From Vitis vinifera (taxonomy: Eukaryota > Streptophyta > Magnoliopsida > Vitales > Vitaceae): 64,000 nucleotides of DNA. Below the pieces are notes generated by a model. The model made no database searches. It was not told the origin of the DNA and saw only the letters and a program-made list of their open reading frames with translations. Positions within the stretch are counted from its first letter, which is position 1. The number at the start of each line of letters is the position of its first letter. The stretch is from positions 4,983,001 through 5,047,000 of the forward strand of contig NC_081806.1 in NCBI RefSeq assembly GCF_030704535.1, given 5' to 3'. Made by a program: the position numbers and the translations under genes. Shown one piece after another: positions 280 to 44,751 of the stretch.

Positions 280-1529
280 GTATTTGTAGACCCCCTTTTT
301 GGGAGTCATTCTTGCAGCCTTGACAAGTGTCACCATCTTGCATGGCCACGTGTCACTCCCGGATTAGTCAATATGGGATCAAAATAGTGGAATTGATGGA
401 CCAATAAGAGATTGACACCTGGAAAAAGGGAATCAGAAGAATATTTGGCTGTTGAGAGGAGCGTAGGAGAGGGGTGCTTTTTCTGCGGGCTGAGAGATAT
501 TTTGAGGGGATCTTTTTCTGTTAGGGGGGATGCTTTTTGAGTGGGGGGATTTTGTAGGCCGTTATGGGGTAGCAAGCCAGCTGCAGTAGGGGAGGCATCT
601 TCTGCAGGTGAGGGGGTGCCTTTTGAGTAGGAGGAGCGTATGAGAGAAGGGAGGCTGCTTTTCAGAGGGGGGATTTTTTGGACAGAGCATTTTTTTTTTT
701 TTTTGTTTTGGCTGGGGGGAGTGGAAAAAAGGAGAGTAGCAGAGGAAAGGAAAAACCAACTTGAAGGTGAGCAGCTTCGGAGGAAACTTGGAGCGAGACT
801 AGTCTTGCTAGAAAGGGATATTCTCAGGTATGAAGGCTACAAGTTTATTGATTGTTTTTGCCTGTTTATCACTCTCCTGTGTTTATTGTTAATATTGGAG
901 TATTCATTGATTTGTTTGGGGTGGATAATGAAGGCCACTGGTTGCTTGTTGAGATATAATCTTGCACTCATGTTTTTCATTTTTAACCTTAAGACGCCTT
1001 GCTTCAATTGTGAAAACACACATAGTTGCATGTGAGGTAGTCTTTCTCACCTAAACAGAGGGCTCACTGACGACCTGTGAAGTGAAGACCCATTTGGAGC
1101 TATTTTTACCAGTTTTCTTTCATGCTTTGCCTCCATGGTTTCCTCTCTGTTGTGGTTACATTCTCGTTTTTTTCTTTTTGGATCTTGTTCTATGCATGGG
1201 CTATGAGTGAGTGAGAGGGTTTGGGTTCATCTGCTAAGTCCTGCAAGGATACACGCCCTCACAGGTGAGATGATACAAATTAAAGGAATAGATCAGAGTT
1301 CAAGTGATTCAGTAACTTTAGGCTTGTCAATGACACCTTGAAATCATCCTTGATTGGAAGGTTCCCATGTGCTAAGAAGATGATGATCCTGGATGTGGTG
1401 GACTGGTGGGAAAGGAATGAAAATGCTTAGAAGGTATGGAAACACTGAGGTACTTCCTCTTTAATGTATGATGGAATGAGGGAGCTGTCCTTGATGAGGA
1501 AACAAAATGTTCAAGCTACTCTGGCAGAA

Positions 1530-2690
1530 ATCAATCGGGTCCTTGGTTTCAAGCTAGCATTAGAATATTGGAACTCCGGTTTTGTTTCTATATGGCGGTT
1601 GAGAATTATGAAGCGGCATTTTGTGATGTTCAGATAATTCTTACGCTCTTCCTAGACTATAAGGTGTTTGAGGGACGGGTCACAGCCTCCCAACTTCGCA
1701 TGTCTGTACATGCGCATGTTGAGAATTAGACAACAGCAGATTGCTGGCTACAGTTGTATGATCGGTGGTCTTCAGTTGATGATATCGGGTCCCTCTCTGT
1801 TATCTACCAGATGCTAAAATCTGATGCTGCAAAAGGTATTCTTTACTTTCAGACAGTCTTTGTTCCTCCTGAGGTTGAACTACCCAGAAGCAGCCATGTG
1901 AAGTTCATAGCTTGCCCGTCAACATGCATCTAATGAACATGAATGTCTAGTATATGAGGGAGAGATCTTATATGATACAGGTCATTATGAGGAAGGGCTT
2001 TGGAAAGCAAATGAGTCTATTTGCCTTAAAAGGTCTTTTGAGGCCTTCTTTTTGAAAGCTCATGCATTGGCTGATTTTAGCCAAGATCCATCCTACTCAT
2101 CAACTATTATTTCACTCATTGAAGATGCCTTAAAGTGTCCCTCAAATAGGCTTCGCAAAGGTCGGACCCTGAACAATCCCGGCAGTGTGTACGTTGACTG
2201 TGGGATATTAGATTTGGCTGCTGATTGCTACATCAATGCCCTCAAAATCCAGTACACCCGAGCCCACCATGGTGTTGCTAGGGTTCATTTCCTCAAAAAT
2301 GATAAGACTGTTGCATACCTAGGAACGACTAAACTGATTGAGAAGGCCAGGAATAATGCTTCTGCCTGTGAGAAAAGGTTCGAGTATTGTGAGCGTGAAC
2401 TCACAAAGGCAGGTCTGGAGATGGTCACTAGATTAGACCCGCTTCGGGTTTACCTTTGTAGATATCGAGCTGCAGTTCTGATGGAAAGCCACAAAGAGAA
2501 GAAAGCAATAGCAAAATTGTCAAGAGCAATAGCGTTCAAGGCAGATCTTCATCTTCTACACCTAAGGGCAGCCTTTCATGAGCACATTGGAGATGTGTCG
2601 GGGTGCACTACGAGAATATGGAGGTGTCATCTCTGTAGATCCTGACCATCAAGAGACATTGGAACTTCATAGTCGTGTCAATAGTCATTA
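1530..2690 (+). pseudogene. ETO1-like (BTB/TPR) C-terminal fragment, captured in element A
   Basis: Translated in shifting frames, this stretch matches what I recall of the C-terminal TPR half of ETO1/EOL proteins, the CUL3 adaptors that target type-2 ACC synthases for degradation and so restrain ethylene production. The longest open piece (2052-2645) holds TPR-like blocks such as CGILDLAADCYINALKIQ, then MVTRLDPLRVYLCRYRAAVL and SRAIAFKADLHLLHLRAAFH. Upstream pieces (1560-2050) read on only after several frame changes, and the tail re-enters after a frameshift near 2600. No intron borders are obvious across about 1.1 kb, so the piece looks spliced, although I cannot confirm the parental gene structure. 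The N-terminal BTB part is missing. It cannot make a working ETO1. Confidence 0.75.
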
Positions 2691-2699
2691 CCCATTCCA

Positions 2700-3225
2700 T
2701 CCATAATGCCCATTACCTCCATTCATTACACCCATCTGCTACAATCCATTCCACATAGCCATATCCTTTATACCCATTTTCTCACTACCCATATATATGC
2801 TTCATATGCTTCATCCCTATTCTCATGCACATACCTCACTAATCACCACCCTACTCTCCAATACCCAACTCATCCATTTTTTTCCTCACCATGTCCCACA
2901 TCATCCATTTTCATTCCATCACTTAATACACACAAAGTCCTTTGCTCTCATTATTCAACCTTCTCATACCCATCTCCTGCACCACGCATCCTTCACATTC
3001 ATCTACCCACTTCTTTTTCTAAACCTCCATGCCCTTGGTCTAATACATGCTTTATTCCATCATCAATCTCTGAAACCCAAGAAATCTGTAAACCATCCTT
3101 GGTAACATACCCTACACTCTTGGCTGCCTTGACCCTCCAGAAGCACTTCGATTCCATTCGTTCAATTATCACTCAGGTGGTGAGAGTTTGGTTCTGGGTT
3201 AGTGAGGAAATGTAGGGGAATCTAT
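2700..3225 (+). repeat. Pyrimidine-rich CCAT/CACCCAT low-complexity tract
   Basis: This stretch is rich in C and T, with many variants of CCCAT and CATCC. Open frames of 169 and 102 aa run through it, but they follow from base composition (His/Ser/Thr/Pro-rich) and match no domain I know. A similar tract occurs on the opposite strand in element B (about 32690-33010), so it may belong to the element family. Confidence 0.5.
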
Positions 3226-3339
3226 TGGTACCGAAATTGATGAAGGTGTCTTGCATGCACACAGATTCGAATTTCTTGCTACTATAACAGCGGAATTAGC
3301 AATATGGTTCTAGTAGCAGTGGGTTTATCATTAAATGAA

Positions 3340-3842
3340 TGAGGGTGCAGAATTGCTACAAGGGGTAATTGAAGAGGAGGCCGCCACTAATGCTGTTCCT
3401 GAGTCGGAGAAGGATGGAAATATTGAAACAGAAGAGGATACGGTCTAAGAGGGTGACCAAATTAGCTGTGTCAAGACAACTGATGTCACCATGGCAGACT
3501 ATGAAGCTCCAGACATGAATGAATCAGAGCAACATTCGATTGGTGAAAATCTAGAAACTCATGAGCTTGAAGCACTATTTCAACATGTAACAGAAGGGGA
3601 GCCCGCCATATGTGCTGTTTCTGAGTCTGAGAATGATGAAAAGATAGAAGCAGAGGAAGCTAAAATTTCAGATGGTAGTCAAGATGAATGTGATGAGGCA
3701 ATTGACATCACGTCATGAGATGATGAAGCTCCAGATTTGAAACAATTAGAAGAGCACTCAATAGAAGCAGAAACCAAAGATTTAGCCATAGCTGAATTGC
3801 AGAAAGAGGAAGTTTCAGAGACCGAGAAGCCCACGTCCTGAG
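3340..3842 (+). pseudogene. Acidic coding fragment of unknown origin, captured in element A
   Basis: Frame by frame this reads as an acidic, Glu/Asp-rich sequence; the open part at 3491-3718 gives 75 aa. An acidic unit of about 45 aa occurs at least twice with variation (around 3343-3450 and 3560-3680; compare NAVPESEKDGNIETEED with CAVSESENDEKIEAEEA). Stop codons fall near 3447, 3716 and 3839. It sits directly before the VPS41 fragment but does not resemble the VPS41 N-terminus as I know it, so it is probably a piece of another gene. I do not recognise the parent. Confidence 0.45.
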
Positions 3843-3845
3843 ATT

Positions 3846-4287
3846 TTGGTTCCCCACTTAGTGTGGCAGGATGATACTCTCTTGGTCATTGGTTGGGGAA
3901 CATCTGTGAAGATTGCTTCAATAAAAGCAAACCAGTCCAATGGAACCAGTGGGACTCACAGGAATGTTTCCAAGTCCAGCATGAACCAGGTGGATATTGT
4001 GGCATCATTTCAAACCAGCTATTTCACTTCAGAAGTTGCTCTTTTTGGTGATTCTTTGGTTGTTAGCCTATATTCTTGGAGAAGAAGATGGAGAGAAAGA
4101 ATTTAGCAGCACCATTCCATCACGCCAGGGAAATGCGCAAAGACCTGAAGTACACAGAGTCATATGGAATAATGATGAGCTTACGACAGATGCCTTGCTT
4201 GTACATAGCTTTGAGCATTACATGGCAAAGGACTATTCCCTTGCTCATGCTCTTTTCACGGGTAGTAACTATGCTGGTGGTCAGTGG
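3846..4287 (+). pseudogene. VPS41 fragment (HOPS subunit), captured in element A
   Basis: The sequence reads HLVWQDDTLLVIGWGTSVKI and continues through NQVDIVASFQTSYF. After one frameshift near 4055 it goes on with GEEDGEKEFSSTIPSRQGNA, WNNDELTTDALLVHSFEHY and DYSLAHALFTGSNYAGGQW. I recognise this as part of the N-terminal beta-propeller region of plant VPS41, the HOPS subunit that tethers membranes at the vacuole. About 145 residues are covered with no intron visible, although VPS41 genes normally have many. The match stops abruptly at GGQW and an NPG-like fragment follows in the same frame. It is a non-functional piece. Confidence 0.85.
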
Positions 4288-4692
4288 AAAAGTTGGGGAG
4301 TCGAAAGAATACTCAGTGGAAAAGTTGGAGAGTTGAAAGAATACTTAGTGGACTTACTGCATGCAGAAAGTGTTAAATTTGAAGGTCATGGGCAAATCCA
4401 AGAAGCTTTGGCTGCTTATATCAATGCCCTTTTACTAGATCCGGGTTATGTGCTTTGCAGGATCTTGATTGGTGCTCTGTTGTTGAAGATGGGCTCGAAG
4501 GCATTTCCTGCTGCGAGAAACCTACTTTCAGATGCATTGAGGATGGAGCCTACCAACCAAATGGCTTGGTACTACCTGGGAATGGCTCACAAAGATGATG
4601 GACGAATAACTGATGCTACAGACCGCTTCCAAGCAGTCTCCAATCTTGAAGAATCCAATCCCCTCATTCCACCCCGGTCCCATGCATGCACG
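4288..4692 (+). pseudogene. NPG-like (calmodulin-binding TPR) C-terminal fragment, captured in element A
   Basis: In the same frame as the end of the VPS41 piece, the sequence reads as TPR repeats: GQIQEALAAYINALLLDPGY, then ARNLLSDALRMEPTNQMAWY and YLGMAHKDDGRITDATDRFQ, ending in NLEESNPL. This fits the C-terminal TPRs of the NO POLLEN GERMINATION (NPG1/NPGR) family. The very C-terminus is lost where the element's conserved 3' region begins. A direct duplication of about 33 bp (about 4284-4350, GTGGAAAAGTTGG twice) lies at the junction with VPS41. The joined frame 3997-4725 encodes 242 aa of VPS41-NPG chimera. Confidence 0.7.
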
Positions 4693-4693
4693 T

Positions 4694-5608
4694 ATCCAGT
4701 TGCATGGCCACTTTTGGTCACGTGACATCTCCCTTTTTATCCTCTTCGACTTTGACAATAATTTTTCAGACCTCATTTTTTTAAATAATTGTCCAAATCC
4801 TTATTTTTTTTAGAAATAATCTCAACTCCAAAATTTTCATTCTTAGAGTTTTAGGTATCAAAATCCCATTTTCAATAAAATTTGGCCGCCATTTTCTTTC
4901 CGGCAAGTCACTTTCGAATTTCCTTTAATTTTTTAAAAATGTTTTAAAATAAGTATGAATTTATTCCCGTAATTCCGAATGATGGAAATTTATGGGATTA
5001 ATTCATACAAAAATAAACGGGCTTTGGTGGGAGCCCCACATCAAATAAATTTTCATCAAAATAAAAGTGAATTTGAAATAATATCAGGCATGATATTGGT
5101 GCTTCTTTATCTGGTTGGATGATATGCGTGATATACTTTATGTTCATTACTATGCACTAACCCCATTTTGTGATAGCGCGTTGCCGTTTGCTGATCAAGT
5201 ACGCATCCACTTCCACTTTGGTTATTCTCTATGCATATTTTGATACTCATATGTGCATGATCGATTTGAGTATTCATCGATTTTCTCATTGATTGCCATG
5301 TTAGCTTCATTTTATTAGTAGAGACCCGACTTTAAGGACTTAGAGGGGTGCTACGGTCTTTATCGTACCTTCTTGATAAGTAACCTGACCCCCCGAACCC
5401 GATCCGGTTTTTCGTAGACCAACCTTTTCCAAAACAAGGAGTCACACTTAGGGTTTTCTTTCTTATTTTGTTTACCCTTTTAAAAATAAAACAAAAATAA
5501 GTGACGACTCCAAGTCATTTTCAAACAATAAATAAAATCAATTTTTCAAATAAAAATCGAGTTCGTCATCGAGTGGAAAATGCATTGAGCCGAAATATGG
5601 GGTCCACA
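4694..5608 (+). repeat. Conserved 3' terminal region of the A/B/C element family
   Basis: This non-coding region recurs at the 3' end of element B (minus strand, about 29530 down to 28624) and, split by B's insertion, of element C (about 34830-34410 and 28623-28123). Shared landmarks in A are GCATGGCCAC near the start, GGGCTTTGGTGGGAGCCCCA near 5020, the block AACCTGACCCCCCGAACCCG near 5381, and GTGACGACTCCAAGTCATTT before the GGGGTCCACA end. No gene is visible in it. Confidence 0.75.
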
Positions 5609-5613
5609 GTATT

Positions 5614-30508: not shown

Positions 30509-30892
30509 TTACCATCTCAAACTACAGCTAATATTGGGAATGATAATTGGTGGCAAGAGGGAGAAAAGAAGTGGATCTCCTGATTTCCCTTCAACATTAA
30601 CAGGTAAATTTGCCAAAAATCCAGAAACTTTCTTCTCTGACAATATATCTGCCGATGCTGAAGAAGAATGCGACACCTTACCAGGTCCTTCGTTTCCATT
30701 TGTACTGTAGGATGAAGAGAAAGCAACCATGTCATCAACAACCCTATTCATGTCTGCTTCGTGCCAAGCCCACTTATTATCATCAAAACTAAGGGATGGA
30801 TTTCTATGGTATGGTAACAGAGGGTGATAAATGGGGAGAGAGGTATAATTATGGGCATGCAAGGGTAAGGACATGCATGGACAAGTGGCCAC
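30509..30892 (-). pseudogene. Unrecognised coding fragment captured in element B
   Basis: The minus frame of 127 aa includes DDNKWAWHEADMNRVVDDMV and a Ser-rich stretch. The part from FDDNKWAW to SGFLANLP looks like real protein, but the first 40 residues are CCAT-type low complexity. I do not recognise the family. Confidence 0.35.
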
Positions 30893-31097
30893 ACACGTGG
30901 TGTAAGGAGAGAAGGGTGGAAAAGAATAGGTAAATGGGGTGTTGAGAAGTGGTGAAGAAAAGACAAGAGGGCCAGGAGAGTGCTCAAATGAGGAATAGGG
31001 TTGTCAATTTTAACCCCCTTTGACTGGTGATGGCAGATTTGGAGTTCTAGTTGAGAGGGAAGGAATGTAGCTGAAACCCAATTTTTCCTATTACCAC

Positions 31098-31925
31098 TCA
31101 GCAACTTATACCCTGAATAATCCCTGTAACATCACTTACAGCAATCACAGCACTAATGCACCTGACCAAGCAATGGATATTGTTGTTGAAGCCACCAGTG
31201 TCAACATTGGAGGCAATAGAGCTCCATATATTAGATGTCATGAAGGCAGCAAATAAATACGGTAACAAACTCCAAGAACCATCATTTGCACCTCCAACTT
31301 CTTCTAAAATCATTCTCACCCACTCAGAATCATGATCACTAACTAAATTAACACTGTTTGCCACCACCCTCATCCTCCTTATTTCCTTCTTTTCAGGTAT
31401 TTCATCGGGTAAATGCTTAACAATCCCAGCTGATAATGAATATATTAGGGGCACACCTTCTTCAAGAGCAGCTCCAGCAGCTTCTACCAGTAGTTGATCC
31501 AAGGCCAGTGCTCACCCTGCCTGAATACAGAACCTAATTATTGTGTTCATATCCACTATCTGCCTCAAATACGACTCCTTCTCTGTATGATCACAAGAAT
31601 GCATGACTGCAGCAACTGCCTCTAGCACCTCACGGTTTGACCTCAATGATGTGTCAATGCAATTTAAAAGTGCAGCTGTACGTTCTTTCATCATTCTGTC
31701 TAGCCTGTCCACTCCATAGCCACCAAAAATACGAACATAAGATTACAACTCTCTAAGATCAGTAACTGATTCGGCGAAGTATCCACTATCCACCCACAGG
31801 CCTCGTACTCTTGAAGCATTTGTGGACTGGTGCAAAAAGGATTCCAGCACCTGATATATCCTTTTCAATGTTCTCAATGTACTAGTAGCAAACCACTTTA
31901 GTTGCTGATCCAGTATTTAGATCAG
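31098..31925 (-). pseudogene. NAP1/NCKAP1 (SCAR/WAVE complex) fragment captured in element B
   Basis: On the minus strand about 260 residues can be read: LDQQLKWFATSTLRTLKRIY, VRGLWVDSGYFAESVTDLRE, a TAG, then IFGGYGVDRLDRMMKER, TAALLNCIDTSLRSNREVLE, QIVDMNTIIRFCIQAG, a TGA in place of Cys, then EEGVPLIYSLSAGIVKHLPD and DTGGFNNNIHCLVRCISAVI. I recognise plant NAP1 (GNARLED), a SCAR/WAVE subunit that activates ARP2/3 actin nucleation. Two in-frame stops and loss of both ends make it dead. NAP1 genes have many introns, yet none is visible across 830 bp, which suggests a cDNA origin. Confidence 0.85.
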
Positions 31926-32421
31926 CTGGTTTCTCTAACAAATGCAAAGAAGAAACTGGCCCTGAAAAGGTCTTCGAGAGAAAACTTCTCTGATTCCCCG
32001 GGTTAGGTCCATGCTAATGATCAAACCTTCTATCCATGTTCAGGGAACCCACTACAGTGTGCTTTAGAAGGTTCCCTTCCCGAATCACCATATAATAACT
32101 GAGGCAGAGCTCATAATAACCTGTAGGGTGGCAACCCAGTTTTCACATCAAGACTCACATGGTCACAAATCGCCTTTGCACACCATTAAAATGATGATAA
32201 ACCCGATGATGCCTATTCCAATTCAAAAGAAGAAATAACAGGTGGCTCATTTGAGTTAAACTGACGCTCCATGCTTCCAGAAATTCTAGCTTCATGTGGG
32301 AAATTTGGCTCGAGGTAGTTGGAAGGGCAATTCAATTCACAAGGGAATTTGCAGTTGAACTTTGACTACATTTCGAAAGGTCCTCCGCTTCTATCCACCT
32401 TTGGCATCACCATCGTCTCCA

Positions 32422-33500
32422 CTACTCTGTTATATCCTTGGAGATGATGGATGGATAGATTGGTTTCGATGACCAACAAGAGGCTAGCCTTGGAACTGTA
32501 CAAGCAAACCTAATGCTATATGAGAGTTCAGCTTCTTCTTCACAGAACTGTTCCAGTGGTCCTTTATGGCATTGTCCATCCTTCTCGGCAAGAATTTTGT
32601 CAACTCTAGCTACTTGTTTCCATATATTCAGTATGTGGTTAAAGGTGAGAAGGATGGGTATAATGGTGAATTGATAGGAAGTAATCAAGTTGGCATGGTG
32701 ATGAGGGTATTGGAGGTATGAAGGTTAGGAAATGGGCATGAAGGATAGGAGGTGTTGAAGGATGCAGGCATGGGGTTATTGGTATGGAGGGTGTAGGTTA
32801 GTGAGAGAAAATGGGTATGAGGAATTCGGTGGGTATGGGAGATTGAAGGATGGCTATGCATGCCTGATCCCTATGCCTGAGTGAGAAATGGGTTGAAGGC
32901 AGCAAGTTCGGCAAAGTAATGATGAATGACAAACTTGTAGGTGAGAGTGCCATGGTGATCAAGTTTAATGGATAACGGAGGAGACAGGGGACGGTGGGCT
33001 TGGCATGCATGGTACCTTTCACCCCTCCTTCAACTTTATATTTCACTCATCAACTCTGAATTTTCCTCTGCTTTCTGACCACACTGCGTCTGATACTATC
33101 TTTAATATTGGAGCATGACTCCTCCATTCTACCTAATGCAGCAATATTTCTACTGGCATATGAAAACTTTACGGGTAGCTTCAGGAGTTCTTTTGGACAG
33201 TCACCAAGGAGATGGGATTGACTGTATCCTCAATTCAAATGTAGACCCAGAAAACCCAACATCATGTGAATCAGATTCAAAATCTATCTGCTTCAACCTC
33301 CGTTTAGAACCGGACACTTTCTCCTCTTCGTCAATCCTCTTAGCCCACAAGCATGGCTCCACTCAATTCCACCAAGCCTCAGATCAAGCAAACCATCAAC
33401 CACAGCAAGAATATAGGGATGAGAGTAAAAGCAGAAATTATAGTGAACACAGAGAATATAACCAATAGGGCAACATGCACCACATGAACGTATAGGACCT
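32422..33500 (-). other. Element B middle: unrecognised fragment and low-complexity tract
   Basis: A minus frame at 32422-32688 includes KQVARVDKILAEKDGQCHKG and PLEQFCEEEAELSYS, protein-like but not identified. From 32690 to 33010 the minus strand is CCAT/CACCCAT-rich, like 2700-3225 in element A. From 33100 to 33500 the sequence has no supported gene and probably belongs to the element's 5' leader. Confidence 0.35.
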
Positions 33501-35085
33501 CATTTCAGGAGGCCCAAAACAGGTGGGATTCCTTAAACTGGATTTGCACAGTGTATACAAAACAGATTCATTCCAGCTCCAAGTCAAACCACGAGAACAG
33601 CAATGAGATCAACAACGACAGAGTATAAGTATGATCCAGAAATCAACAAAGTTAAGCATGTAATCCATATTATCCGACCCAAGTAGACGAGCAGTGTAGA
33701 GTCAAACAAAATGAAAAAAAAAATGTGAAATATATGAATCAAAATAAGCAAGAAACTCACCTCAAAACTCACTTGCAGCCCCTTTCTTTCTCTGTTCTCC
33801 TTCTCTAAGCTCCAGCTAGCCAAAAACGCCCAAAATCTCTGTCAAACAGCCCTGAAAAACCCCCTCCTCTGCAGCCTCAAACCTCTCTGCTCCCTCTCTC
33901 TCTGTGGTTCTCCCTCAATTTTTCCCCCTCCAAAAATATCTCTTTCTCATCTTCTCCCTGCTAGCCTCCTCTAAAAAATATCTCTGACCGCTTGCTCTCA
34001 GACCACCCTCCAGCAGCCCAGGTACCCTCTCCACTACCATGCAGCTGGCAGCCAAAAAGCATTCTCTCCTCTCTGTAACCGCCTGCCTCCCTGCAGATAC
34101 GCTACTCTTCTCCCTGCTAGCCTCCTCTAAAAAATATCTCTAACCGCCTGCTCCCAGACCACCCTCCAGCACCCCATGTACCCTTTCCACTACCATGCAG
34201 CTGGCAGCAAAAAAACATCCTCTCGTCTGCTCCCCTCAACGATTTGTAGCCTTTTTCATATTCTCTGGACACGCGTCGACACCCATTGGCTTCCTGAACC
34301 CATTATCTGATTCTTCAACAGCCAATGAAGAGGCAACACGTGGCCTCCTGAAGCTGCTCCACCTGGAAAAATTTGCTGCAGCAATTACCTCCCAAAATGG
34401 GGGTCTACACCATCAACAACACACATGACATTTCATTCAAATTCAGTTTTATTTTGATGAAAATTTATTTGATGTTGGGCCCCCACCAAAGCGCATTTAT
34501 TTTGCATGAATCAATTCCATAAACTCCATCACTTGGAATTACGGAATTTAATTCTTACTTATTTTAAAAACATTTTAAAAATATTTTAAAAACAAAGAAA
34601 ATGCAAAAGTGGCTTGTCGGAAAGAAAATGGCAACCAAATTTTATTAGAAAGGGACTTTGGAACCTGAACATTATAAAGAATGAAAAATCTGGAAGATTA
34701 TGCAAAGGATAAAATTTGGAAAGATTATTTTCAAAACCAAGAAGGGTGAGATGAGAAAAATAAAAGGAAATGACACGTGGCATGAGGGTGGCCATGCTAA
34801 GGTGGCCATGCATAGAGAATTCCCGTCTAGACCCATCCTAGAGGAACACTTTTGCTGGAATGCACTGAGAAAAGCCAATATTTGACCCTTCGAACTAGTC
34901 ACTGCATTTTGCTAGTGGAGGGGCCCACCATCTTACTCCTCTGCACAAACTCAAGAAAATGATCATAATTTTCCACCAAAACCGTAGCATGGCAGGGAGA
35001 AATAGTAGTTGAAAGCCTCCAGTCCACATCATCTCCAACAGGTGAGTGTACAAAACTAGAAACTAATGCATTCTCCTTCCGTGTG

Positions 35086-35400
35086 CTACTCAGTTTGATG
35101 TAGTGCTGTACAAGACCATGAAGGGGTCAACTCGGCCTTGTCGTCAATATAAATTTCCATAGGATCTTGCATAAATTTCTTGCAAACAGGGCGGATTCCC
35201 TTGCTGAGGGTTGCTGAAAACATCATAACCTGCTTATCATAAGGAGCCGTCTTGAAGATCTCTTGAACGTCCCTCCTCATGTCAAGTGATTCAAACATCT
35301 CGTCACATTCATCAAGGATAAGGTTTCTCATATTCTTTAAAGCAAGGTCCTTGTCTCCAGCAAGTGCTAGTATCCTTCCAGGTGTTCCAACAACAATATG
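35086..35400 (-). pseudogene. UAP56-type DECD-box RNA helicase fragment captured in element C
   Basis: The minus strand encodes [60 protein letters not shown] and [17 protein letters not shown], then a frameshift (TALHQTE). The motifs are TPGR (Ib), DECD (II) and SAT (III); DECD marks the UAP56/Sub2 subfamily of mRNA-export helicases. Motifs I and IV-VI are missing. About 100 residues run on without an intron. Upstream in the same frame (35403-35694) lies unrelated Ser-rich sequence, another chimeric join. Confidence 0.85.
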
Positions 35401-36577
35401 AGGGCTTTCACGTGATGGAAGTTGATTCCTGAATTGAAAGCTGAGAGTAGATGAGAAAGCCAATGGCTTTTCAGTCATAGATGAATCAGACTTCAAACAA
35501 GAACCTCTATCCTTTGTGGGCGGCTTCAATTTATTGGAGAGAAATCCACCAGCAATGCGACCAGATGGCCACTGAAGTTGCATAGAGGGAGTTTCTTGGG
35601 AAAAGGCTGGATACACAAGAGATGAAGAGGCTGCCAAGGATGTCCAAGGTGTCAATTGAGCCTCTTTAAGCAATCGAGCAGCAGTTGTGCTCAAACCAGA
35701 TGCTTGTAGGTGTTCAGGGATAAGGAGTAAGAGTTCCTTGGAATGACAAGTAATAGGCGTGGATAATATGGAAGATGACTTTCAGTTGATGAACTTAGTA
35801 TACTCATGCATGGTTAAGACTTTCTCTGTTTGACACCTTCTTCGGTTGATTGCTCATTCTCTGCCCATTTGTTTCATCTCCATTGTCATGTCTTTGTTCA
35901 CCAGGTCTACCAATTCCTAAGCTAGGATTCCTTGAAATATTGATACTATATTCACAATATCCATATGCTGCACCAGTTTCCTTCTCAACCAGCTCATCTA
36001 TTGCTTCTCTGTGAGGATGTTGTCATGCATGAGCAGGAATAATGTTTCCAATGAAGATCAGAGTTAAGGGCTCAGAGTCCAGAGTCCAGAGTCCAGAGTT
36101 GTGGCGTGCTTGGTGCCACTGTAATCATCTTAACACTGGAAGGTTTTAACGATATCTCATTCCAGACATAAGGAGTTCGGAAGCAGGTAAAGGATTCTGG
36201 ATGCAAAGGATTCTGGATGTTTTATAGCTTTTTGAAAATTCAAACGACACCAGATTAATCCCTCCAATTTATTAAACTGGTTTTTACCTTGATATATGCC
36301 ACTGATACAGTCAACAAGGTAAACTAAAGTAGCAAGATCTATATGACCTCATCATGTTATGTTATGTCTAGATCAATACCAAATCATCATGGGAACTATA
36401 GCATTTCCCTCCAATTGCCGTCACGCCAGTTTAATGATGCTAGAAGAAACTCTAGAACATAGTTCATGAACCTTTGTTGATCTTGTTGAGGATAACATTG
36501 ACATCTGTTCTCATCTTCTTCACCAGATTTGCTCAATCAATCATGTCACCTCCACTGACGCCGTCATTAGCCTATTG
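35401..36577 (-). other. Element C: unrecognised fragments
   Basis: The 98 residues fused before the helicase piece (to 35694) include [20 protein letters not shown]. Another protein-like stretch (about 35830-35990) includes GAAYGYCEYSINISRNPSLG. A short tandem repeat of AGAGTCC lies at 36078-36100. Stops break everything, and I recognise none of the parents. Confidence 0.35.
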
Positions 36578-36582
36578 AGTAG

Positions 36583-37298
36583 TGTTGAGGCCTCGCGTCC
36601 CTGATGATCCACGTAGTTGCCAAATGAATGGACGCACGATCTCAACCAATATAGATTCCTGGTTCAGTCGTTCCTGCAAAAAGCGTCCGGACAGGGTGTC
36701 TGGACACACTCTCCGATGGTTTTGTCAGCCATGGAAAGAGAGATAAATCAGTTGGTCTTTTACTAAGTATAGCAAGCTTACCTTCCTCTTTGTGTGAAGG
36801 TTCATATATATAATACCAGAAGCTTTGTTTCTCTCTTTAATGGTAGAAAGATATTTTGGCTTGTCATGATGCCACTAGGTGGTGGCAGGGCCATCATTAC
36901 CCTACGGGCGGCTGACAGAGATCGTGGGAGGCGCCGCGGCTGTTAGAAATCATGGGCAGTGACTTGCCATCACTTCATTCCTGTCCTTTAACTCTGCAGG
37001 TGGCGGGACGTGGGCCATGGCAGGCTGTTATGATGACATGCAAGACTTGCTTACTTCAGTCAATGATCCGGACAAACATATCCGGATAGGATATGTCAGT
37101 CGTCCGGATGTGATATGATGATCGTCTGGATGTGATATTTGCGAGTGTCGTGTGCTTCTCACTGAGGAAGTCCGGATAGGAGAAGCTCGCCACGTGTACT
37201 CTTGGGGAAATCCGGATGGGGGTAATCCGGATGAGAATACGTGCCACGTGTCATCAGGAAATGTGTGCCACGTGGCATCAGGGGGAGGGGTCCCTACA
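36583..37298 (-). repeat. 3' LTR of the Tat-type element
   Basis: This 716-bp LTR is almost the same as 41942-42657, with a scatter of substitutions. It contains many CCGGAT motifs (about 37065-37230) and several CCACGTG boxes. It is preceded on the minus strand by the polypurine tract AAAAAGGGGGGCAT (37312-37299). Confidence 0.93.
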
Positions 37299-37312
37299 AT
37301 GCCCCCCTTTTT
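37299..37312 (-). promoter_or_regulatory. Polypurine tract
   Basis: On the minus strand AAAAAGGGGGGCAT abuts the 3' LTR; this is the normal plus-strand primer site for reverse transcription. Confidence 0.8.
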
Positions 37313-37502
37313 AACTTGCCGATTTTGCCTGAGCAAAATCGGCGGGTTAAAAAATAATTGGTTTTTGAAACTGAAGTTGACTTTTTTTGTCGTGCAACTC
37401 AGCTAATGCGTGCAGGGCCTCTAAATGGTTTAGACACCGAAGGTAGGGACTTGTGAAGGATCGTTTGTACAAGTGCCCCTCAATCAGGGTGAAATGGGCG
37501 GC

Positions 37503-39212
37503 TTACACCCGGATCTTGTGTGCCTGTTTGGGATCTTCGGGCAGAGTGCCTGTCCGGAGGTACCCTATAATGTTGCTCGTCCACTCTTGGCCGTCTGCTT
37601 GTTTTGCCTCAATGGTGTTGCAAGTGGAAGTTTCTACGATGGAAGAGTTGGTTTGCACATGTATAGGCAACAATATGGCTTCTTTGATGGAGAGGGAGGC
37701 AGCTATGCCTGCCAAGGCGTCGGCGTGCCCATTTTCAGTTCGTTTGATTTTTTCGATCGTCTACTTGGTGAATCGTTGTAAGGTGTCCCTTACTTTAGTT
37801 AGATATCGCGCCATGCGCGCATCCTTAGCTTCATATTCGTTCTGGACGTGTCTTACCACAAGTTGAGAATCACTATAAACCCGGAGCTTGGAGACGGATA
37901 GAGCCAGGGCGAGGTCCAATCCGGATAGGATGACCTCATATTCCGCTTCATTGTTAGAGGCAGGGAACCCCAGTCGGATGGATTGCTCCAGATGTTCTCC
38001 TGTTGGGGATTGTAGGAGGAGCCCTACCCCGGATCTTGACGATCGGGAGGCTCCATCGACTCGCAAAGTCCACCATTCTTCTTCGCTTGGTTCCTTGTGT
38101 TGGATGGGCCTTCGAGAGTATTCTAGCATGAAGTCAGCCATTACTTGGCTTTTCATGGACAATCTGGGTTGGAACTCGATTTCAAATTCGCTCAATTCTA
38201 TGGCCCATTGTAGCATTCTTCCGATTAAGTCTGGTTTGTGCAGAATGTTGCGAAGGGGTTGGTCAGTTAGAACAATCACTGAGTGGGCTTGGAAATAGGG
38301 GTGGAGCTTTTGGGCGGCACTTCGAAGAGTTAAGGCTGTTAGTTCCATCTTTGAATATCTGGTTTCTACGTCCGCCAATGCTCTGCTGACGTAGTAGATA
38401 GGTTTTTGCTCCTTGGGTGAGGGGCAGCGGAATAGAACAGCGTTGATCGCCCACTCTGACATAGCCAGATACATGTACAATTTATCTTCAGGGATGAGGC
38501 TGCTTAGGATAGGCGGTTGCATAAGGCAGTGTTTAATTTTATCAAAAGCGTTTTGACAGCTGTCTGTCCATCCGCTTGCTCCCGCTTTTCGTATTGCCAA
38601 GAAGAAGTGTCGCAACTCATCAGTGAAGCGGACTATAAAACGCCCTAGTGCGACGAGCTTGCCTGTGAGGCGTTGTAATTCCTTCTTGTTCCTGGGAGGT
38701 GGTGTTTCCATGACTGTCTTGACTTGATCCGGGCTAACCTCTATCCCTCTTTGGCTGACCATGAATCCCAGGAACTTGCCAGCACTTACGCCAAAGGCGC
38801 ATTTAGAAGGATTCAGCTTCATGTCATACTTCCTCAAGAGGTGGAAGACTTCTTGCAAGTGGAGGACATGCTCCTTTCGGGTTTTGCTTTTGACCACGAT
38901 ATCGTCAATATATACATCTACTGAGTGGTCGATCAGAGGTTTGAAGATCTTCGTCATCAGTCTCTAATAAGTGGCGCCAGCGTTTTTGAGTCTGAATGAC
39001 ATGACTTTGTAGCAATAGAGACCATGTGGTGTTATGAAGGCTGTTTTTTCTACGTCAGCCGGGGACATGGGAATTTGGTGGTATCCGGAGAAGGCGTCCA
39101 AAAATGAGAGCATCCCTTGCTTAGCAGTGGAGTCCACGATTTGATCTATTCGCGGCAAAGGGAAACTGTCTTTCGGACATGCATTATTGAGGTTGGTATA
39201 GTCGACGCACAC
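37503..39212 (-). pseudogene. Tat-type reverse transcriptase, RNase H and second RNase H
   Basis: The frame 39212-38964 gives VDYTNLNNACPKDSFPLPRI and DAFSGYHQIPMSP of the RT palm, then is shifted. The frame 38957-37761 (398 aa) starts near the catalytic VDVYIDDIVVKSK (YIDD), passes the RT thumb and first RNase H (YYVSRALADVETRYSKMELT), and ends with a second RNase H domain (WTLRVDGASRSSRSGVGLLL, NNEAEYEVILSGL, YSDSQLVV), as in Tat/Ogre elements. A frameshift near 37760 leads to a last piece (37715-37503), the tail of that domain and linker. No integrase zinc finger or D,D-35-E core follows. Confidence 0.88.
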
Positions 39213-39604
39213 CCGCCATTTGCCTTCTTTTTGGGTACCACTACTACATTTGCTAACCAGTCCCGGTAATCCACTTCTCTGGTGAATCCGGCTTCTAGCA
39301 ACTTGTCAACCTCATTCCGGATAATTTCTTGTCTGTCTGGGTGGAAACATCTAACCCTTTGCCGGATGGGTCTGGCTGTTGGCAAGACGTTAAGTCTATG
39401 AGAAGTAATGGAGGGATCAATTCCCTTCATATCAGAATGTGCCCATGCAAAGACGTCATGGTTTTGTCTGAGGGCATTCTGCATGTTCTGGGTCTCTTCC
39501 GGTGTCAGGAGGGAACTGATGTTCGAAAGGTGAGTACTTTCTTCCGAAATTTGGATTGCTTGCAAGGGATCCGCTGTCGGAGGATCTTTGTCCGCCGGAT
39601 CCAA
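39146..39604 (-). pseudogene. Reverse transcriptase N-terminal part (Tat-type)
   Basis: The minus frame of 152 aa includes NHDVFAWAHSDMKGIDPSIT, PIRQRVRCFHPDRQEIIRNE and VDKLLEAGFTREVDYRDWLA, followed by NVVVVPKK, the standard entry to the Gypsy RT domain. A frameshift after VPKKKANGG separates it from the next RT piece (39212-38964). Confidence 0.88.
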
Positions 39605-39796
39605 TAATTGCTATTGGTCACGTGCATGGCTGGACTTAGGGAGGGATGCATCCTCCTGGCTGGTCCCTGCTTCTCGTGCTATCTAGTAGCATTGGCGAGC
39701 GGCTAACTGGCTGTCATATAGGTCAATTTGCCCATCCTTGGTAAGGAAACTTACCATTTGATGATATATGGAGGGGATGACTTTCATGTAGTGTAG

Positions 39797-40543
39797 TCAT
39801 GTGCGCCCCAAGATGACATTGAAGGGTGATAAATCTTGTACCACCAAAAATTGTACGTTGAGAGTGACTGGGCTAGCTTGGACCGGCAGTACAATGTCTC
39901 CCAAGGACGTAGTTGACGACCCGTTGAATCCGGATAGGATTCGCCCAGGGTTTTCAAGGCCTGTGAGACTGTGTCCCATGTGGCTAATGACCGATGCTTG
40001 TACAAGATCGGCTGAGCTGCCCGGGTCGACCAGAATGCGCCTCACGTCGAAGTCTTCTATCTCTAGGGACAGGATGAGGGCGTCGCAGTACGGATGCAAT
40101 ATCCGGGTGGGGTCTACTGGTGGAAAAATGATTGTCCCATCTATGGGGCGGGGCCCCCCTCCAGTTATCCCAAGCCAGATGGAGTTGATACGCTCGCGTA
40201 CCGATGCGGCCCGCAACAACTTTTGTCTCTTTCGTTTGGAGTCATACTCCTCGTCAGATGGGCGTCCGTTAATATAGTTTATAACGGATTTGAGGGCGGC
40301 TGGGGCCTTAGGGGCTCTAGTGTTGTGGTTTTGAGAAGCGTTTCTACCTCCGGCATCTGAGCGGAGGTATTGCTTTAAGTGTCCCGCCCTTATGAGTCTT
40401 TCGACCAAATAATGGAGGCTCCTGCATTCTTCCGTTGTGTGACCATGCTCCTTGTGGAAGGCACATTTTTTGCTATGATCTCTTTTGGATGGGTCCGTTC
40501 CGAGGGGTCTAGGCCGCATGAAGTCGGACATGCCTTGGATCAT
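39797..40543 (-). pseudogene. Gag C-terminal zinc-knuckle-like region and aspartic protease (Tat-type)
   Basis: The 248-aa minus frame carries CAFHKEHGHTTEECRSLHYL, the CHHC knuckle typical of Tat gags, a basic linker, then the retropepsin core RRILVDPGSSADLVQ (D-x-G-S-S) and NVQFLVVQDLSPFNVILGRT. A stop or shift lies between this and the RT. The processing enzyme would have cut the polyprotein; this copy is dead. Confidence 0.85.
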
Positions 40544-40612
40544 AGGGAAAAGTTTCTCATATGATATGGAGAGAGGTGTGAGGAGCGGTCTTTCCGGGCG
40601 ACCTGACCCTTC

Positions 40613-41416
40613 CTACTTTCGATTGGACGGCCTTAGACGGTTCGGAAGTTTGGCATTTCTATCCGCGCCACTTCTAGATGCCTGTCCAGCAACCAAGACT
40701 TGCTGGGTGGCTGCTCGTACGTCATCTTCGAGCATTGAGTATTTGTTTGCATGTCTGAACAAGTCGTCCATCATTGTTGGAGGCTTTTTAGCGAGTGATT
40801 CAAAAAATGGGGTGCCTGGACAGATGCCTCGTTTGAAGATCTGCAGGACAACATCCATACTGTAAGCCTCTACCTGAAGTACGGCTTGACCAAACCGTTT
40901 CACGAACTCCCTTAAGGATTCGTTGTCCTGCATTTTTATGTTTTGCAGAGTGCTGATGTTCTGCTTATGTCAAGCGGAGCACAAGTATTGTCCCACGAAG
41001 GCCTCTGATAGGTCTCTGAAATTATCAATAGAGTTGGGAGGTAGGTGATGAAACCATGAGAGGGCTTGCCCCTGTAGGCTAGCGAGAAATACTTTGCATA
41101 GCAACGCGTCGTTGCTTATATCGAGAGTCATGAGCTGTCGATAATGCATGATATGATCGAAGGGGTTGTTGGACCCATTGTATGTGGATAATTTGGGCAC
41201 GAGGAAACCCCTTGGGGGCTCGTAATGAATGATATGAGAGCAGAAAGGCGTGGAGAGCATGTCGTCCAATCTTTTGCTGATGGAGCCAGTAGGTGACTCA
41301 TTTGGGAGGTTTCTCCCAGATTGTCGTACCGTTAGGTTCGGTTGAACGTTCTGCACCATAGGGGTGACCATGGGGTCACGGTGTGGGAGAACGTTTTGCG
41401 TCATAGGGGTGACCAT
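40613..41416 (-). pseudogene. Gag (retrotransposon capsid) of the Tat-type element
   Basis: Two minus frames, 41416-40970 and 40933-40613, form one gag domain broken by a stop near 40967: KLSTYNGSNNPFDHIMHYRQ, LQGQALSWFHHLPPNSIDNF, then NESLREFVKRFGQAVLQVEA. The motifs Y-G...DP/PFDH, W-F-L-P-P and S-L-R-E-F-V-x-R-F are the plant Gypsy gag pattern. Confidence 0.85.
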
Positions 41417-41473
41417 AGGGTCAGGGTGTGCTTCCCAGGCTGTGGCTGCTGGTGGCCTTGGCCTTCTAGGCTC

Positions 41474-41941
41474 CTATGGGCCTAGTCTCGCGCGCATTGA
41501 GTTTGACAACTGGGGCCTATTGTCGCGTTGTCTTTTTGCTGAAAAATGAGTAGAGTTTGAGCTTTCCTCACAGGGAACTCGGTGCATGGGAGTGTGTGGC
41601 TCATGTGGCCTAACGTTGCTAGTTTCTGGGATGGCTCTTGTTGTCCCAGGGTATATTGACTCTGGTTCCGGCCTTGAGTTTGCCATCTGGCCTCTCGAAT
41701 GCTGGCGACGGGGAGGCCCCGTCGATGAAGCCTGGATGCGTAGCACCGCGTTTTCTTCTCTTAACCTTTCTGTCTCCTGGAGGAGAGTTTGCAGTTGCTG
41801 TTCGCTTGCCAACTGTCTTCTTTCGATGGCATGGCGCCATTCAGAATGATCTTCTTCTTCCTTACCAAATGAACGGCTTTGGGAAAGTGTGGCTATCTTC
41901 GTCGGTGACTGAATCAACGATTTTCCCACAGACGACGCCAA
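41474..41941 (-). other. Leader and N-terminal gag region with PBS
   Basis: Directly inside the 5' LTR the minus strand reads TTGGCGTCGTCTGTGGGAAA, a decayed PBS of the TGGCGCC type. The frame that follows (to 41474) is Gln/Glu-rich, with SEWRHAIERRQLASEQQLQT and LLQETERLREENAVLRIQAS, a coiled-coil N-terminus of gag. Confidence 0.6.
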
Positions 41942-42657
41942 TGTTGAGGCTTCGCGTCCCTGATGATCCACGTAGTTTCCAAATGGATGGGCGCACAATC
42001 TTAACCAATATAGATTCCTGGTTCAGTCATTCCTACAAAAGGCGTTCGGACAGGGTGTCCGGACACACCCTCCGATGGTTTTGTCAGCCATGGAAAGAGA
42101 GATAAATCAGTTGGCCTTTTACTAGGTATAGCAAGCTTACCTTCCTCTTTGTGTGAAGGTTCATATATATAGTACCAGAAGCTTTGTTTCCCTCTTTAAT
42201 GGTAGAGAGATATTTTGGCTTGTCATGATGCTACTAGGTGGTGGCAGGGCCATCATCACCCTACGGGCGGCTGACAGAGATCATGGGAGGCGCCGCGGCT
42301 GTCAGAGATCATGAGAAGTGACTTGCCGTCACTTCATTCCTGTCCTTTAACTCTGCAGGTGGCGGGACGTGGGCCATGGTAGGCTGTTATGATGACGTGC
42401 AAGACTGGCTTACTTCAGTCAATGATCCGAACAAACATATCCGGATAGGATATGTCGGTCGTCTGGATGTGATATGACGATCGTCCGGATGTGATATTTG
42501 CGAGTGTCGTGTGCTTCTCCCTGAGGAAGTTCGGATAGGAGAAGCGCGCCACGTGTACTCTTGGGGAAATCCGGATGGGAGTAATCCGGATGAGAATACG
42601 TGCCACATGTCATCAGAAAATGTGTGCCACATGGCATCAGGGAGAGGGGTCCCTACA
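41942..42657 (-). repeat. 5' LTR of the Tat-type element
   Basis: 716 bp, the partner of 36583-37298 and the same length. Followed on the plus strand by AGTAG, the target duplication. Confidence 0.93.
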
Positions 42658-42662
42658 AGTAG

Positions 42663-43500
42663 GTTGGCTATCTCATGCTTGTGCTTCATCAACTTTGCAA
42701 GAAAATTACTACAATTCTTGAATGCTTGAGCCACATACTCGTATATTCCTACCCCGTTGGATCTGGGTTTCTTGTTACTCTCCGGAGGTGGGAATTTGTC
42801 CTTCCTAAGGACAAAATCTGGATTCCGATAATACTTATTGACCTTGGGTGTCCTCTTCTCCTTCTCCATAAATTCACCGGTCCCATGACTGTTCCCCATC
42901 ACTGAGACACTAAGCCCTCGAAATAGCCATGAATCTTGAACTCCCACAGAATATTACCAATACCTCAATCCCTTATTGTTAAAGCATGAAATTAGTGGGG
43001 CAGTGCAATGGCTGCCCGTACTCCGCTGCAACTTCACCATCACTATCGCCATCTTTATCACCGGACTTGTACTTGGACCTCGATCTGACCTGATGATCAT
43101 CGGCAGCAGTAGCCACCATCTGAGTTTCCAAGACCCGCCAGCGCCACTCTTCTACATGCTGTTGCTTGAGGGACTAGAGCTCGACTGTGATGACTGAAAT
43201 TGGTATGGAAGATCAGAGTTTGGATGCTCAAAGCTAGAACTCTAGAAGGCCTGCTGGAGATGAGGTTGGATAGAGCCCAATTGATCATTCTGGTTGTTGG
43301 TCATTAGGCCCATTTGAGAGCCCATGCAAATACCTGTTGTTCTGCTTGCCAATATCTCTAGGAGACAAATTAAGTGTGTCTCTTAAACTGTTGGCGGCTG
43401 CACTGGGTTGTGAGTGGGAGGATTGAGTCTCGTTGGAACTTGGGTAGAGCTGATGTGACTCACTGGAGCTTGGTTCTGCCAAGTTAAGTCTCTTACAAGG
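42663..43500 (-). pseudogene. Unrecognised coding fragments captured in element C
   Basis: The minus strand reads SSSESHQLYPSSNETQSSHS and NLSPRDIGKQNNRYLHGLSN near 43480-43300, then after stops EKEKRTPKVNKYYRNPDFVL, RKDKFPPPESNKKPRSNGVG and IYEYVAQAFKNCSNFLAKLM near 42870-42670. The last piece is cut by the Gypsy insertion and should continue at 36577. These look like real plant protein segments, but I cannot name their parents. Confidence 0.4.
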
Positions 43501-43559
43501 CTGGGGTTTGGTATTGGCTTGGGCTTGGCTATGGCATGATTGCTCTATCCTTTTTTAAG

Positions 43560-44751
43560 CAGACTCCTAGCCTGGTGGATGACTACATCTGATAGGTCAG
43601 ATGCCGCTACAGTTCATATACTAATGACCATCATCCTTTTCATCCGGGCTCTCTTAGAAACACTGAAAATGCACTAGATGTCTTCACCCTTTGAAGTTTT
43701 CCTTTCTTCTTTCATCTCTTCTGTTTTTTGCCTCTCAAGTTCTAGAACCTCCTCTCCTCACTAACGGCTTCTCCCTCTAGCAAAACTTCTCATCCAAGAA
43801 AATATCTCTTCTCCAATAGCAAAAAAAAAAAAAACCTCTCTCTTCAACTTTGTTTGCTTCTTCAACCAAAACAAACCTCTACAAAATAAATCTCAAAACC
43901 CCCATACGTTTCTTTCAACTATAATAGATCTTTGAAGAAATACACAACCAGATCTGGACTTACCTTCTCATAGCCATGACATTAAACGAGGCCCAGAAGC
44001 AGAGTATTGGCCACAACAAAAGAAGGATCCATTGAAAAGAACACAAAAGAAAACAAGTAAAGGTAGTCTTAAGAGGTTTCACTTCATGAGTCATCTGTGA
44101 ACCCTCTGATCAGGTGAGAAAAACCATTTCAACTGCAACTATGGACATTTTCATAATAGAAGCAGGGCATACTAAGATTAACAATGGCAAACATGAATTC
44201 AGGATTAACTAAACAAAGAACAGGTGGCCTTCATTATAAGCCAACCAACATTCAAATATCAACAAGAGACATAGGAGAGTGATAAACAGCCAAAAACAAT
44301 CAATAAGCCTGTAACAATCATACCTGAGGAAGTCCTTTTACTCCCGAGATGCTTACCTTCAAACTTGTTTCTTCTCCACTTTGTTACATCTAGAAAAGAA
44401 AAGGTATCTCCTCCTATTCTCACCAGCAAGCTCCCTTGGTTTTCTCTCTGAGCTCTCTTCCAGCTCTAAGAAAACTCCTTCTCCTCTCATACGCCCCCTT
44501 CTCTGCCAGAAAACAGCAGCCAAAAGCACCACCTCCGCACACCTGCAACTGGTTTGCTACTCCTCAACAGAAACGCACTCCTCTCTGAAGATCCCTCCCA
44601 GGTGTCGCCCCTTGATAGCTCCTCAAAAAAGCACAATCTGATTCCAAAGCAGCCAACTAAAAGATGCCATGTGGTCTCCTAGGGTTACGACACTTGGCAA
44701 AACAAGTTGTATGAAAATGCATGAAACCGAGCCCTAAAATGGGGGTCTACA
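43560..44751 (-). repeat. 5' terminal region of element C
   Basis: On the minus strand this block is collinear with element A 285-1200: TGTAGACCCCC, a G-rich leader, a CAGGTATGA-like site followed by TTATTGATTGTTTTTGGCTG, and CCTGATCAGAGGGTTCACAG (A has a close match near 1060). It could be a promoter and leader with an intron. The plus frame at 44381-44641 is a shadow of it. Confidence 0.65.

What the first reader, a model, noticed from the sequence alone, without database searches (positions are those of the whole stretch)
285..44751. A family of gene-capturing TG...CA elements without visible LTR pairs
Elements A (285-5608), B (28624-34409) and C (28123-44751 with nested insertions) share the tips TGTAGACCCC / GGGGTCCACA, about 0.9 kb of homologous 5' and 3' ends, and 5-bp target duplications (GTATT perfect in A; CCATT/CCATC in B). 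Their middles differ and are made of fragments of at least seven recognisable host genes. Pack-MULEs (9-bp duplications) and Helitrons (none) do not fit. TG...CA plus 5 bp fits LTR-type integration, yet the 5' end is not repeated at the 3' end. They could be very long solo LTRs containing captured genes, or retroelements with an unusual structure.
Basis: partly seen in the sequence, partly recalled or inferred. Interest (0 to 1): 0.88.

Follow-up and report, generated by a model that had tools for sequence, protein, structure and literature searches.

The report
Giant LTRs carrying spliced host-gene pieces
In a grape-like plant genome, the long terminal repeats of a retrotransposon family hold pieces of host genes that look copied from spliced messenger RNAs, and these gene-bearing repeats now sit in the genome mostly as single leftover units.

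Summary
The observation largely holds. A and B are complete TG...CA units with 5-bp duplications; C is a third unit, opened by B and a nested Gypsy, without a clean duplication. They are long solo LTRs. Relatives occur as true LTR pairs around an internal region: C13 (1,873-bp LTRs, 1 difference, TSD CTGCT), C4 (3.6 kb, 99.4%), C18 (5,134 bp, 99.78-99.94%), with PBS and PPT in place. The gene pieces lie inside the LTRs.

They are spliced-mRNA copies: A holds four consecutive exons of an ETO1-like gene minus three introns, C three UAP56 exons minus two, the C13 LTRs two SERK exons minus one. In ten LTRs sense ORFs matched 23 Pfam families, antisense ORFs none. Best model: reverse transcriptase switches onto packaged mRNA while copying the LTR; strand transfer puts the chimera in both LTRs; recombination leaves solo units (about 35 of the 40 best 3' ends).

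Exon-only capture by LTR elements is known. Host-gene capture inside the LTR, with two genes in one LTR, I did not find in my eight literature searches.

The parts
285..5608 (+). Element A: complete solo LTR, 5,324 bp, TGTAGACCCC...GGGGTCCACA
   Evidence: tips and TSD; no PBS downstream
280..284 (.). 5-bp target duplication of A, left copy (GTATT)
5609..5613 (.). 5-bp target duplication of A, right copy (GTATT)
285..504 (+). conserved LTR 5' end (83% to a paired LTR on C13)
1550..2688 (+). spliced copy of four consecutive exons of an ETO1-like TPR gene (name by recall; parent C7:966257-969686, minus), three introns absent
2675..3064 (+). C-rich, G-poor CCAT tract; a similar tract is in 8 of 12 LTRs
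3985..4722 (+). ORF with a second captured TPR gene fragment (NPG1-like by recall), sense; its end runs into the conserved 3' part
   Evidence: TPR_19 2e-7; the parent search did not complete
4716..5608 (+). conserved LTR 3' end, ~0.9 kb, shared by the nine TSD-flanked units and the paired LTRs
28123..44751 (-). Element C: third LTR of the family (about 4.76 kb by subtraction of B and the nested Gypsy); no clean TSD
28624..34409 (-). Element B: complete solo LTR, 5,786 bp, inserted into the 3' conserved part of C; TSD CCATT/CCATC
31101..31742 (-). captured NAP1/NCKAP1 fragment in B, sense, in two ORFs with one stop between
   Evidence: Nckap1, 1.4e-11 and 1.2e-22
30123..30467 (-). captured vacuolar H+-pyrophosphatase fragment in B, sense
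35106..35410 (-). spliced copy of three exons of a UAP56/DDX39B-type helicase gene (C4:4809109-4810141, minus) in C; two introns absent
36583..42657 (-). unrelated Gypsy element nested in C (LTRs of about 717 bp, 94% alike, TSD AGTAG); not part of the family

Best explanation
A, B and C are long solo LTRs of one family of Ty3/Gypsy-type retrotransposons. Inside these LTRs, between a conserved 5' end (~0.2 kb plus a second block) and a conserved 3' end (~0.9 kb), lie fragments of host genes. They were acquired as RNA: host mRNAs, already spliced, were presumably packaged with element RNA; the reverse transcriptase switched from the element's LTR template to an mRNA and back during minus-strand synthesis; ordinary strand transfer then wrote the chimeric LTR at both ends of the new copy. 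Further rounds and recombination between copies made mosaics of several genes. Recombination between the two long LTRs left mostly solo units. Shown: LTR identity, gene content, sense orientation, lost introns, near-identical pairs with a gene piece in both LTRs, excess of units without a partner. Inferred: packaging, template switching and its exact step, a partner that supplies pol, and LTR-LTR recombination as the source of the solos.
For: LTR pairs: C13:9933054-9934926 and 9944948-9946820 (1 mismatch in 1,873), PBS after the first, GGGGCATATT before the second, TSD CTGCT/CTGCT; C4 3.6-kb pair, 99.4%; C18 5,134-bp LTRs in an LTR-internal-LTR-internal-LTR array, 99.78% over 2,263 and 99.94% over 3,500 aligned positions, the latter with ~630 internal ones. 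LTR ends homologous to A, B and the other units. Gag reading frames inside the C13 and C4 elements. Gene pieces in paired LTRs: SERK/BAK1-like in C13, cryptochrome-2-like in C18. Spliced: 3 of 3 captured genes whose parent search was answered, 6 of 6 introns absent; the four read at sequence level fit GT..AG. Orientation: 129 sense ORFs match 23 Pfam families, about 16 unrelated groups after merging TPR and permease models; 92 antisense ORFs match 0. Seams in the C13 LTR overlap by 4, 6 and 10 bases. 3 of the 40 best 3' ends are followed by a PBS (one degenerate); about 35 of 40 show no PBS and no partner in the list.
Against: Template switching itself is not seen; the seam overlaps come from one LTR, and short ones can arise by alignment chance. 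No pol-bearing partner was found: ORFs of two internal regions gave gag but no RT, RNase H or integrase domain, a tblastn with a divergent Gypsy query found nothing, and the genome search with gag did not complete. No full-length element with the captured set of A or B was seen, so their former pairing rests on homologous ends and TSDs. For the C4 LTR no captured gene was identified. U3 or R position is unknown. Eight of the ten LTRs in the Pfam scan are solo, and some share segments, so they are not independent; SERK, CRY2 and UAP56 were picked by eye from sense ORFs. The upstream side of most of the 40 ends was not examined.
Confidence: 0.87

Rival explanations
1. The units replicate as single-LTR molecules: the 5-kb LTR RNA is itself reverse-transcribed and integrated by a partner's integrase, so most 'solo LTRs' were never paired.
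For: About 35 of the 40 best 3' ends show no PBS and no partner in the list; gene mosaics are shared between solo units (A with L009 at 95% over 2 kb, with L017 at 93% over 0.54 kb).
Against: Gene-bearing LTRs do occur as near-identical pairs with PBS and PPT, which ordinary retrotransposition plus LTR-LTR recombination explains. An RNA of one LTR would lack the PBS, which lies outside the LTR.
Confidence: 0.06
2. Host genes entered as processed pseudogenes made by LINE machinery, inserted into LTRs already in place and then carried along.
For: The tested pieces are intronless.
Against: LINE insertions should fall in both orientations; 23 families sense against 0 antisense. The SERK piece is an internal stretch of two exons joined directly to other segments. 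Poly(A) tails and inner duplications were not surveyed.
Confidence: 0.04
3. A DNA transposon with short inverted ends and 5-bp duplications that captures genomic DNA, like a Pack-MULE.
For: The ends form a short imperfect inverted repeat.
Against: Introns are absent, orientation is one-sided, and relatives are LTR pairs with PBS, PPT and gag.
Confidence: 0.01
4. Chance nesting: unrelated retrocopies and repeats of a repeat-rich genome inside ordinary LTRs.
For: The window holds nested insertions.
Against: Gene pieces lie inside TSD-flanked units, matched on the sense strand only; the SERK-containing chimera recurs at other sites (C18:33920895 95%; C7:25656023, C7:25639108, C7:9565300 86%).
Confidence: 0.02

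Closest known systems
Bs1 of maize (LTR retroelement with several transduced cellular genes)
   Same: An LTR element carrying exon-only pieces of more than one host gene (passage of PMC4717578; reference titles in PMC13317346).
   Different: By recall its pieces lie in the internal region. Here they are inside the LTR, in a whole family, with different genes in different members.
TRIM elements with gene fragments (GmaRetroS15 of soybean, PMC4717578)
   Same: Exons only, no introns; pieces of three genes; 5-bp TSD (passages).
   Different: There the internal region of elements of about 1.2-1.4 kb; here LTRs of 1.9-6.3 kb.
Gene capture by maize LTR retrotransposons (PMC2774510)
   Same: Host-gene fragments carried by LTR elements.
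   Different: [quoted passage not shown] here A and B each hold two.
BARE-2 of barley (template switch in an LTR, cited in PMC13317346)
   Same: Foreign sequence brought into the LTR by abnormal template switching (passage).
   Different: There the donor was another retrotransposon; here the donors are host mRNAs.
Ogre/Tat/Retand lineage of plant Gypsy elements
   Same: Long LTRs, gag, PBS starting TGGCGACTCC (likeness to Ogre by recall); recently active non-autonomous members are known in Retand (passages of PMC11963269).
   Different: The lineage is defined by reverse transcriptase, which was not found in the copies examined.

Membership tests
LTR retrotransposon, solo LTR (A, B) | TG...CA unit flanked by a short direct target duplication | tested here: met
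   A perfect, B 4 of 5; 7 of 9 units perfect
LTR retrotransposon, solo LTR (C) | target duplication | tested here: not met
   flanks TTGTG / CTATG in element orientation; C is counted by homology of its ends only
LTR retrotransposon (family of A, B, C) | the same unit twice around an internal region, PBS after the first, PPT before the second | tested here: met
   C13 and C4 pairs; C18 array
LTR retrotransposon, Ty3/Gypsy-type | gag | tested here: met
   Retrotrans_gag 4.1e-11 (C13) and 5.8e-12 (C4); C18 not scanned. Gag alone does not settle Gypsy against other types
Ty3/Gypsy, Tat/Ogre lineage | reverse transcriptase and integrase of the lineage | tested here: not met
   no pol domain in the copies examined; a partner elsewhere could not be searched. 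Not filed as an Ogre member
Retro-capture of host mRNA | introns of the parent absent from the captured copy | tested here: met
   3 of 3 genes answered, 6 of 6 introns
Retro-capture of host mRNA | sense orientation | tested here: met
   23 Pfam families sense, 0 antisense
Pack-MULE | 9-bp duplication, long inverted repeats, exons plus introns | tested here: not met
   5-bp duplications, short ends, no introns in the tested pieces
Helitron | no target duplication, TC...CTRR ends | tested here: not met
   TG...CA ends and duplications
LINE-made processed pseudogene | poly(A) tail and own target duplication around each gene piece | not tested
   not surveyed

The most novel reading that the evidence does not exclude
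The LTR itself is a mobile gene-shuffling compartment: a family, pol-less in the copies seen, whose 2-6-kb LTRs repeatedly collect spliced host mRNAs in sense, trade them between copies, and spread as chimeric multi-gene cassettes with the LTR's own promoter and terminator, perhaps partly as single-LTR units.
Probability: 0.3. Interest if true: 0.85.

Novelty: new variant of a known kind. Interest (0 to 1): 0.7.

Why it matters
LTR retrotransposons are known to pick up host exons now and then. Here a plant family did it inside the LTR, where each capture is doubled in every new copy and survives even when the element shrinks to a solo LTR. That gives a datable record of mRNA capture across a genome and a natural source of sense-oriented, intronless chimeras of several genes. 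A pair with 1 difference in 1,873 bases suggests recent movement, so which mRNAs are packaged and where the enzyme switches become testable.

Tried and rejected
Rejected: Pack-type DNA transposon, Helitron, chance nesting; LINE retrocopies judged unlikely (see rivals). A pol search in the paired elements with the window's own Gypsy pol pieces as tblastn query gave nothing (a weak test, divergent query). Pfam on 51 internal sense ORFs gave only a weak Hexapep_GlmU match, 8e-4; internal antisense ORFs were listed but not scanned. A PDB search with a piece of the C4 LTR (a serine-carboxypeptidase guess) found nothing, nor did Pfam; that guess is dropped. Pfam gave no match for the SERK-like ORF; its identity rests on the PDB match and the parent gene. 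One search does not say which ORF matched which family, apart from those scanned singly. Copy number was not obtained: the loose first looks gave 376 candidates (5' query) and 3,888 (3' query), of which only 40 each were scored. Seven places in those two lists looked like possible pairs; three (C13:9.93 Mb, C4:9.82 Mb, C18:30.5 Mb) were fetched and were pairs; the other four were not fetched in full (C5 and C1 only at their 3' ends; the two C1 ends share their flank and look like a segmental duplicate).
Full report
SETTING. The window is G000:C2:4983001-5047000 of a 495.6-Mb genome in 21 contigs. Its size and the largest contig seen (C18, 36.67 Mb) are close to the grapevine assembly PN_T2T (494.87 Mb, longest chromosome 36.68 Mb; passages of PMC10199708).

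OBSERVATION. A (285-5608) and B (28624-34409, minus) are exact TG...CA units with 5-bp target duplications, perfect in A and 4 of 5 in B. C (28123-44751, minus) has both tips but no clean duplication; it has been opened by B and by an unrelated Gypsy element (36583-42657, LTRs of about 717 bp 94% alike, TSD AGTAG). I fetched ten loci around the best matches to A's 3' end. Seven of ten gave a unit with both tips; three (L011, L013, L023) did not and were left out. Of the nine units (A, B and seven) seven have perfect duplications and two have 4 of 5. The nine share ~0.9 kb at the 3' end.

WHAT THEY ARE. In the hit lists seven places had matches 12-27 kb apart on one strand. Three of the seven were fetched and are LTR pairs. 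C13: 1,873-bp LTRs with one difference; AAATGGCGACTCCACTGGGGA (PBS) follows the first, GGGGCATATT (PPT end) precedes the second; TSD CTGCT on both sides. C4: 3.6-kb LTRs 99.4% identical with the same PBS and PPT; the end of its 3' LTR is damaged, so no TSD could be read. C18: 5,134-bp LTRs, 99.78% over 2,263 positions and 99.94% over a further 3,500 (about 630 of these internal), in an array LTR-internal-LTR-internal-LTR; the third LTR was seen only at its 3' end. Their ends align with A, B and the other units. So A, B and C are best read as solo LTRs of this family. Of the 40 best-scoring 3' ends three are followed by a PBS: two exact in the C18 array, one degenerate at C5:5382155. With the last C18 LTR and the presumed C5 partner (C5:5363044, whose flank also begins AAATGG but then differs) that makes five LTRs in paired elements; about 35 show no PBS and no partner in the list, and eight of these 35 have matching duplications at both ends, seven perfect and one 4 of 5. 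The far side of most of the others was not examined, so 35 is an estimate.

THE MIDDLES. I scanned open stretches of at least 60 codons, leaving out the last ~0.9 kb, from ten LTRs (A, B, L009, L015, L017, L019, L021, L025 and the C13 and C4 LTRs; L027 dropped as near-duplicate of L019; C18 not included) against Pfam. 129 sense ORFs matched 23 families at E<=0.001: seven TPR models, Nckap1, Vps41, EF-Tu GTP-binding, H+-PPase, two amino-acid permease models, ribosomal L7Ae, O-fucosyltransferase, PIEZO, aminotransferase V, ABC transporter, zf-C3HC, RNB, methyltransferase 29, KH, GAPDH. 92 antisense ORFs matched none. Merging related models leaves about 16 unrelated groups; three matches are weak (5e-4 to 8.3e-4). 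Further sense pieces, picked by eye: UAP56/DDX39B-type helicase in C (5.5e-43), cryptochrome-2 in the C18 LTR (4.2e-12), SERK/BAK1 in the C13 LTR (2.2e-15). A holds two genes (ETO1-like and another TPR gene) and B two (NAP1, H+-PPase). No captured gene was identified in the C4 LTR.

SPLICED ORIGIN. Three parent searches were answered and all three show lost introns. SERK: parent exons C7:28143061-28143155 and 28143237-28143305 are separated by an intron of 82 bp read as GT..AG, and are joined without it in the C13 LTRs (100% identical in both). ETO1-like (name by recall): window 1550-2688 in A matches C7:969361-969686, 968493-968784, 967058-967373 and 966257-966472 in order at 88-91%; three introns (about 0.58, 1.1 and 0.58 kb) are absent and the joints fit GT..AG borders. 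UAP56: in C, 35106-35410 matches C4:4810014-4810141, 4809766-4809885 and 4809109-4809165 at 91-96%; two introns (about 130 and 600 bp by coordinates) are absent (borders not read). The rest of that ORF (query 1-287) matches other places, C4:2539600 and C15:16367393, whose nature I did not determine. Around the SERK piece the neighbouring segments match three other places, with overlaps of 10, 6 and 4 bases at the seams; whether those places are host genes or other LTR copies was not determined.

MOSAICS. A shares 2.0 kb at 95% with L009, 0.54 kb at 93% with L017, 1.2 kb at 97% with L013 and 0.2 kb at 88% with L019 and L027. L019 and L027 share 3.3 kb at 97%. The SERK-containing chimera recurs at C18:33920895 (95%) and at three places on C7 (86%). 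Captured sets thus appear inherited and reshuffled between copies. Two compositional modules recur: a G-rich tract behind the 5' tip (12 of 12 LTRs) and a G-poor, C-rich CCAT tract near the middle (8 of 12; absent from L009, L017, C13 and C4) (thresholds set by hand, no shuffled control).

INTERNAL REGION. The C13 and C4 elements hold a gag reading frame (425 and 548 codons, stop to stop). Fifty-one further sense ORFs of their internal regions gave no pol domain. They appear gag-only and so in need of a partner, which I did not find. The C18 internal region was not scanned.

MECHANISM. Reverse transcriptase that leaves the LTR template, copies part of a packaged mRNA and returns gives this picture: sense orientation, missing introns, internal exon stretches, seams at short homologies, and the same chimera in both LTRs after strand transfer. 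Orientation, intron loss and pairing are shown; switching and packaging are inferred. LTR-LTR recombination would explain the solos.

KNOWN AND NEW. Exon-only capture is known from Bs1 and from TRIMs such as GmaRetroS15 (passages of PMC4717578), and template switching has brought retrotransposon sequence into the LTR of BARE-1 elements, giving BARE-2 (passage of PMC13317346). A maize survey counted at least 189 captures and, under its conditions, no element with pieces of more than one standard gene (passages of PMC2774510). I did not find host-gene capture inside LTRs described in eight searches of the open-access library (listings seen, and passages of PMC2774510, PMC13317346, PMC4717578, PMC8282616 and PMC11963269). 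Most subscription papers are not held there. I file it as a new variant of a known kind.

CHECK. On re-reading the calls I mended the SERK intron (82, not 81 bp), the C18 identity, the 5'-end identities, the number of possible pairs fetched and the statement on genes per LTR; the odds did not need changing.

Noticed in passing
L033/L034/L035, C18:30494500-30516500, and C18:30525925: A tandem array LTR-internal-LTR-internal-LTR with near-identical 5.1-kb LTRs at a 15,187-bp period.
   Followed up: partly
L029:4569-5843 and L032:1346-2989(-): Open gag reading frames (425 and 548 codons) in paired elements without any recognised pol domain: non-autonomous but gag-bearing.
   Followed up: partly
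window 23497-26845, 49150-57189, 60611-63957: Three diverged copies (about 75% alike) of one gene region; ORFs 26391-26843(-) and 63329-63988(-) look like flavin-containing monooxygenase by eye.
   Followed up: no
window 14627-15962: A long array of diverged short tandem repeats that is open in several frames (ORF of 437 codons); related repeats at 17700-17914.
   Followed up: no
window 52813-53997: Copia-type polymerase fragments (by eye) between parts of the second copy of the duplicated gene region.
   Followed up: no
window 2675-3064; LTRs B, L015, L019, L021, L025, L027 and C18: A G-poor, C-rich CCAT tract near the middle of 8 of 12 LTRs; it might be a switching hot spot (no control).
   Followed up: partly
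L030:1588-2429 and 6984-8600; L031:1048-1250 and 5418-6718: Tandem repeat arrays beside or inside the paired elements; one abuts the damaged 3' LTR end of the C4 element.
   Followed up: no
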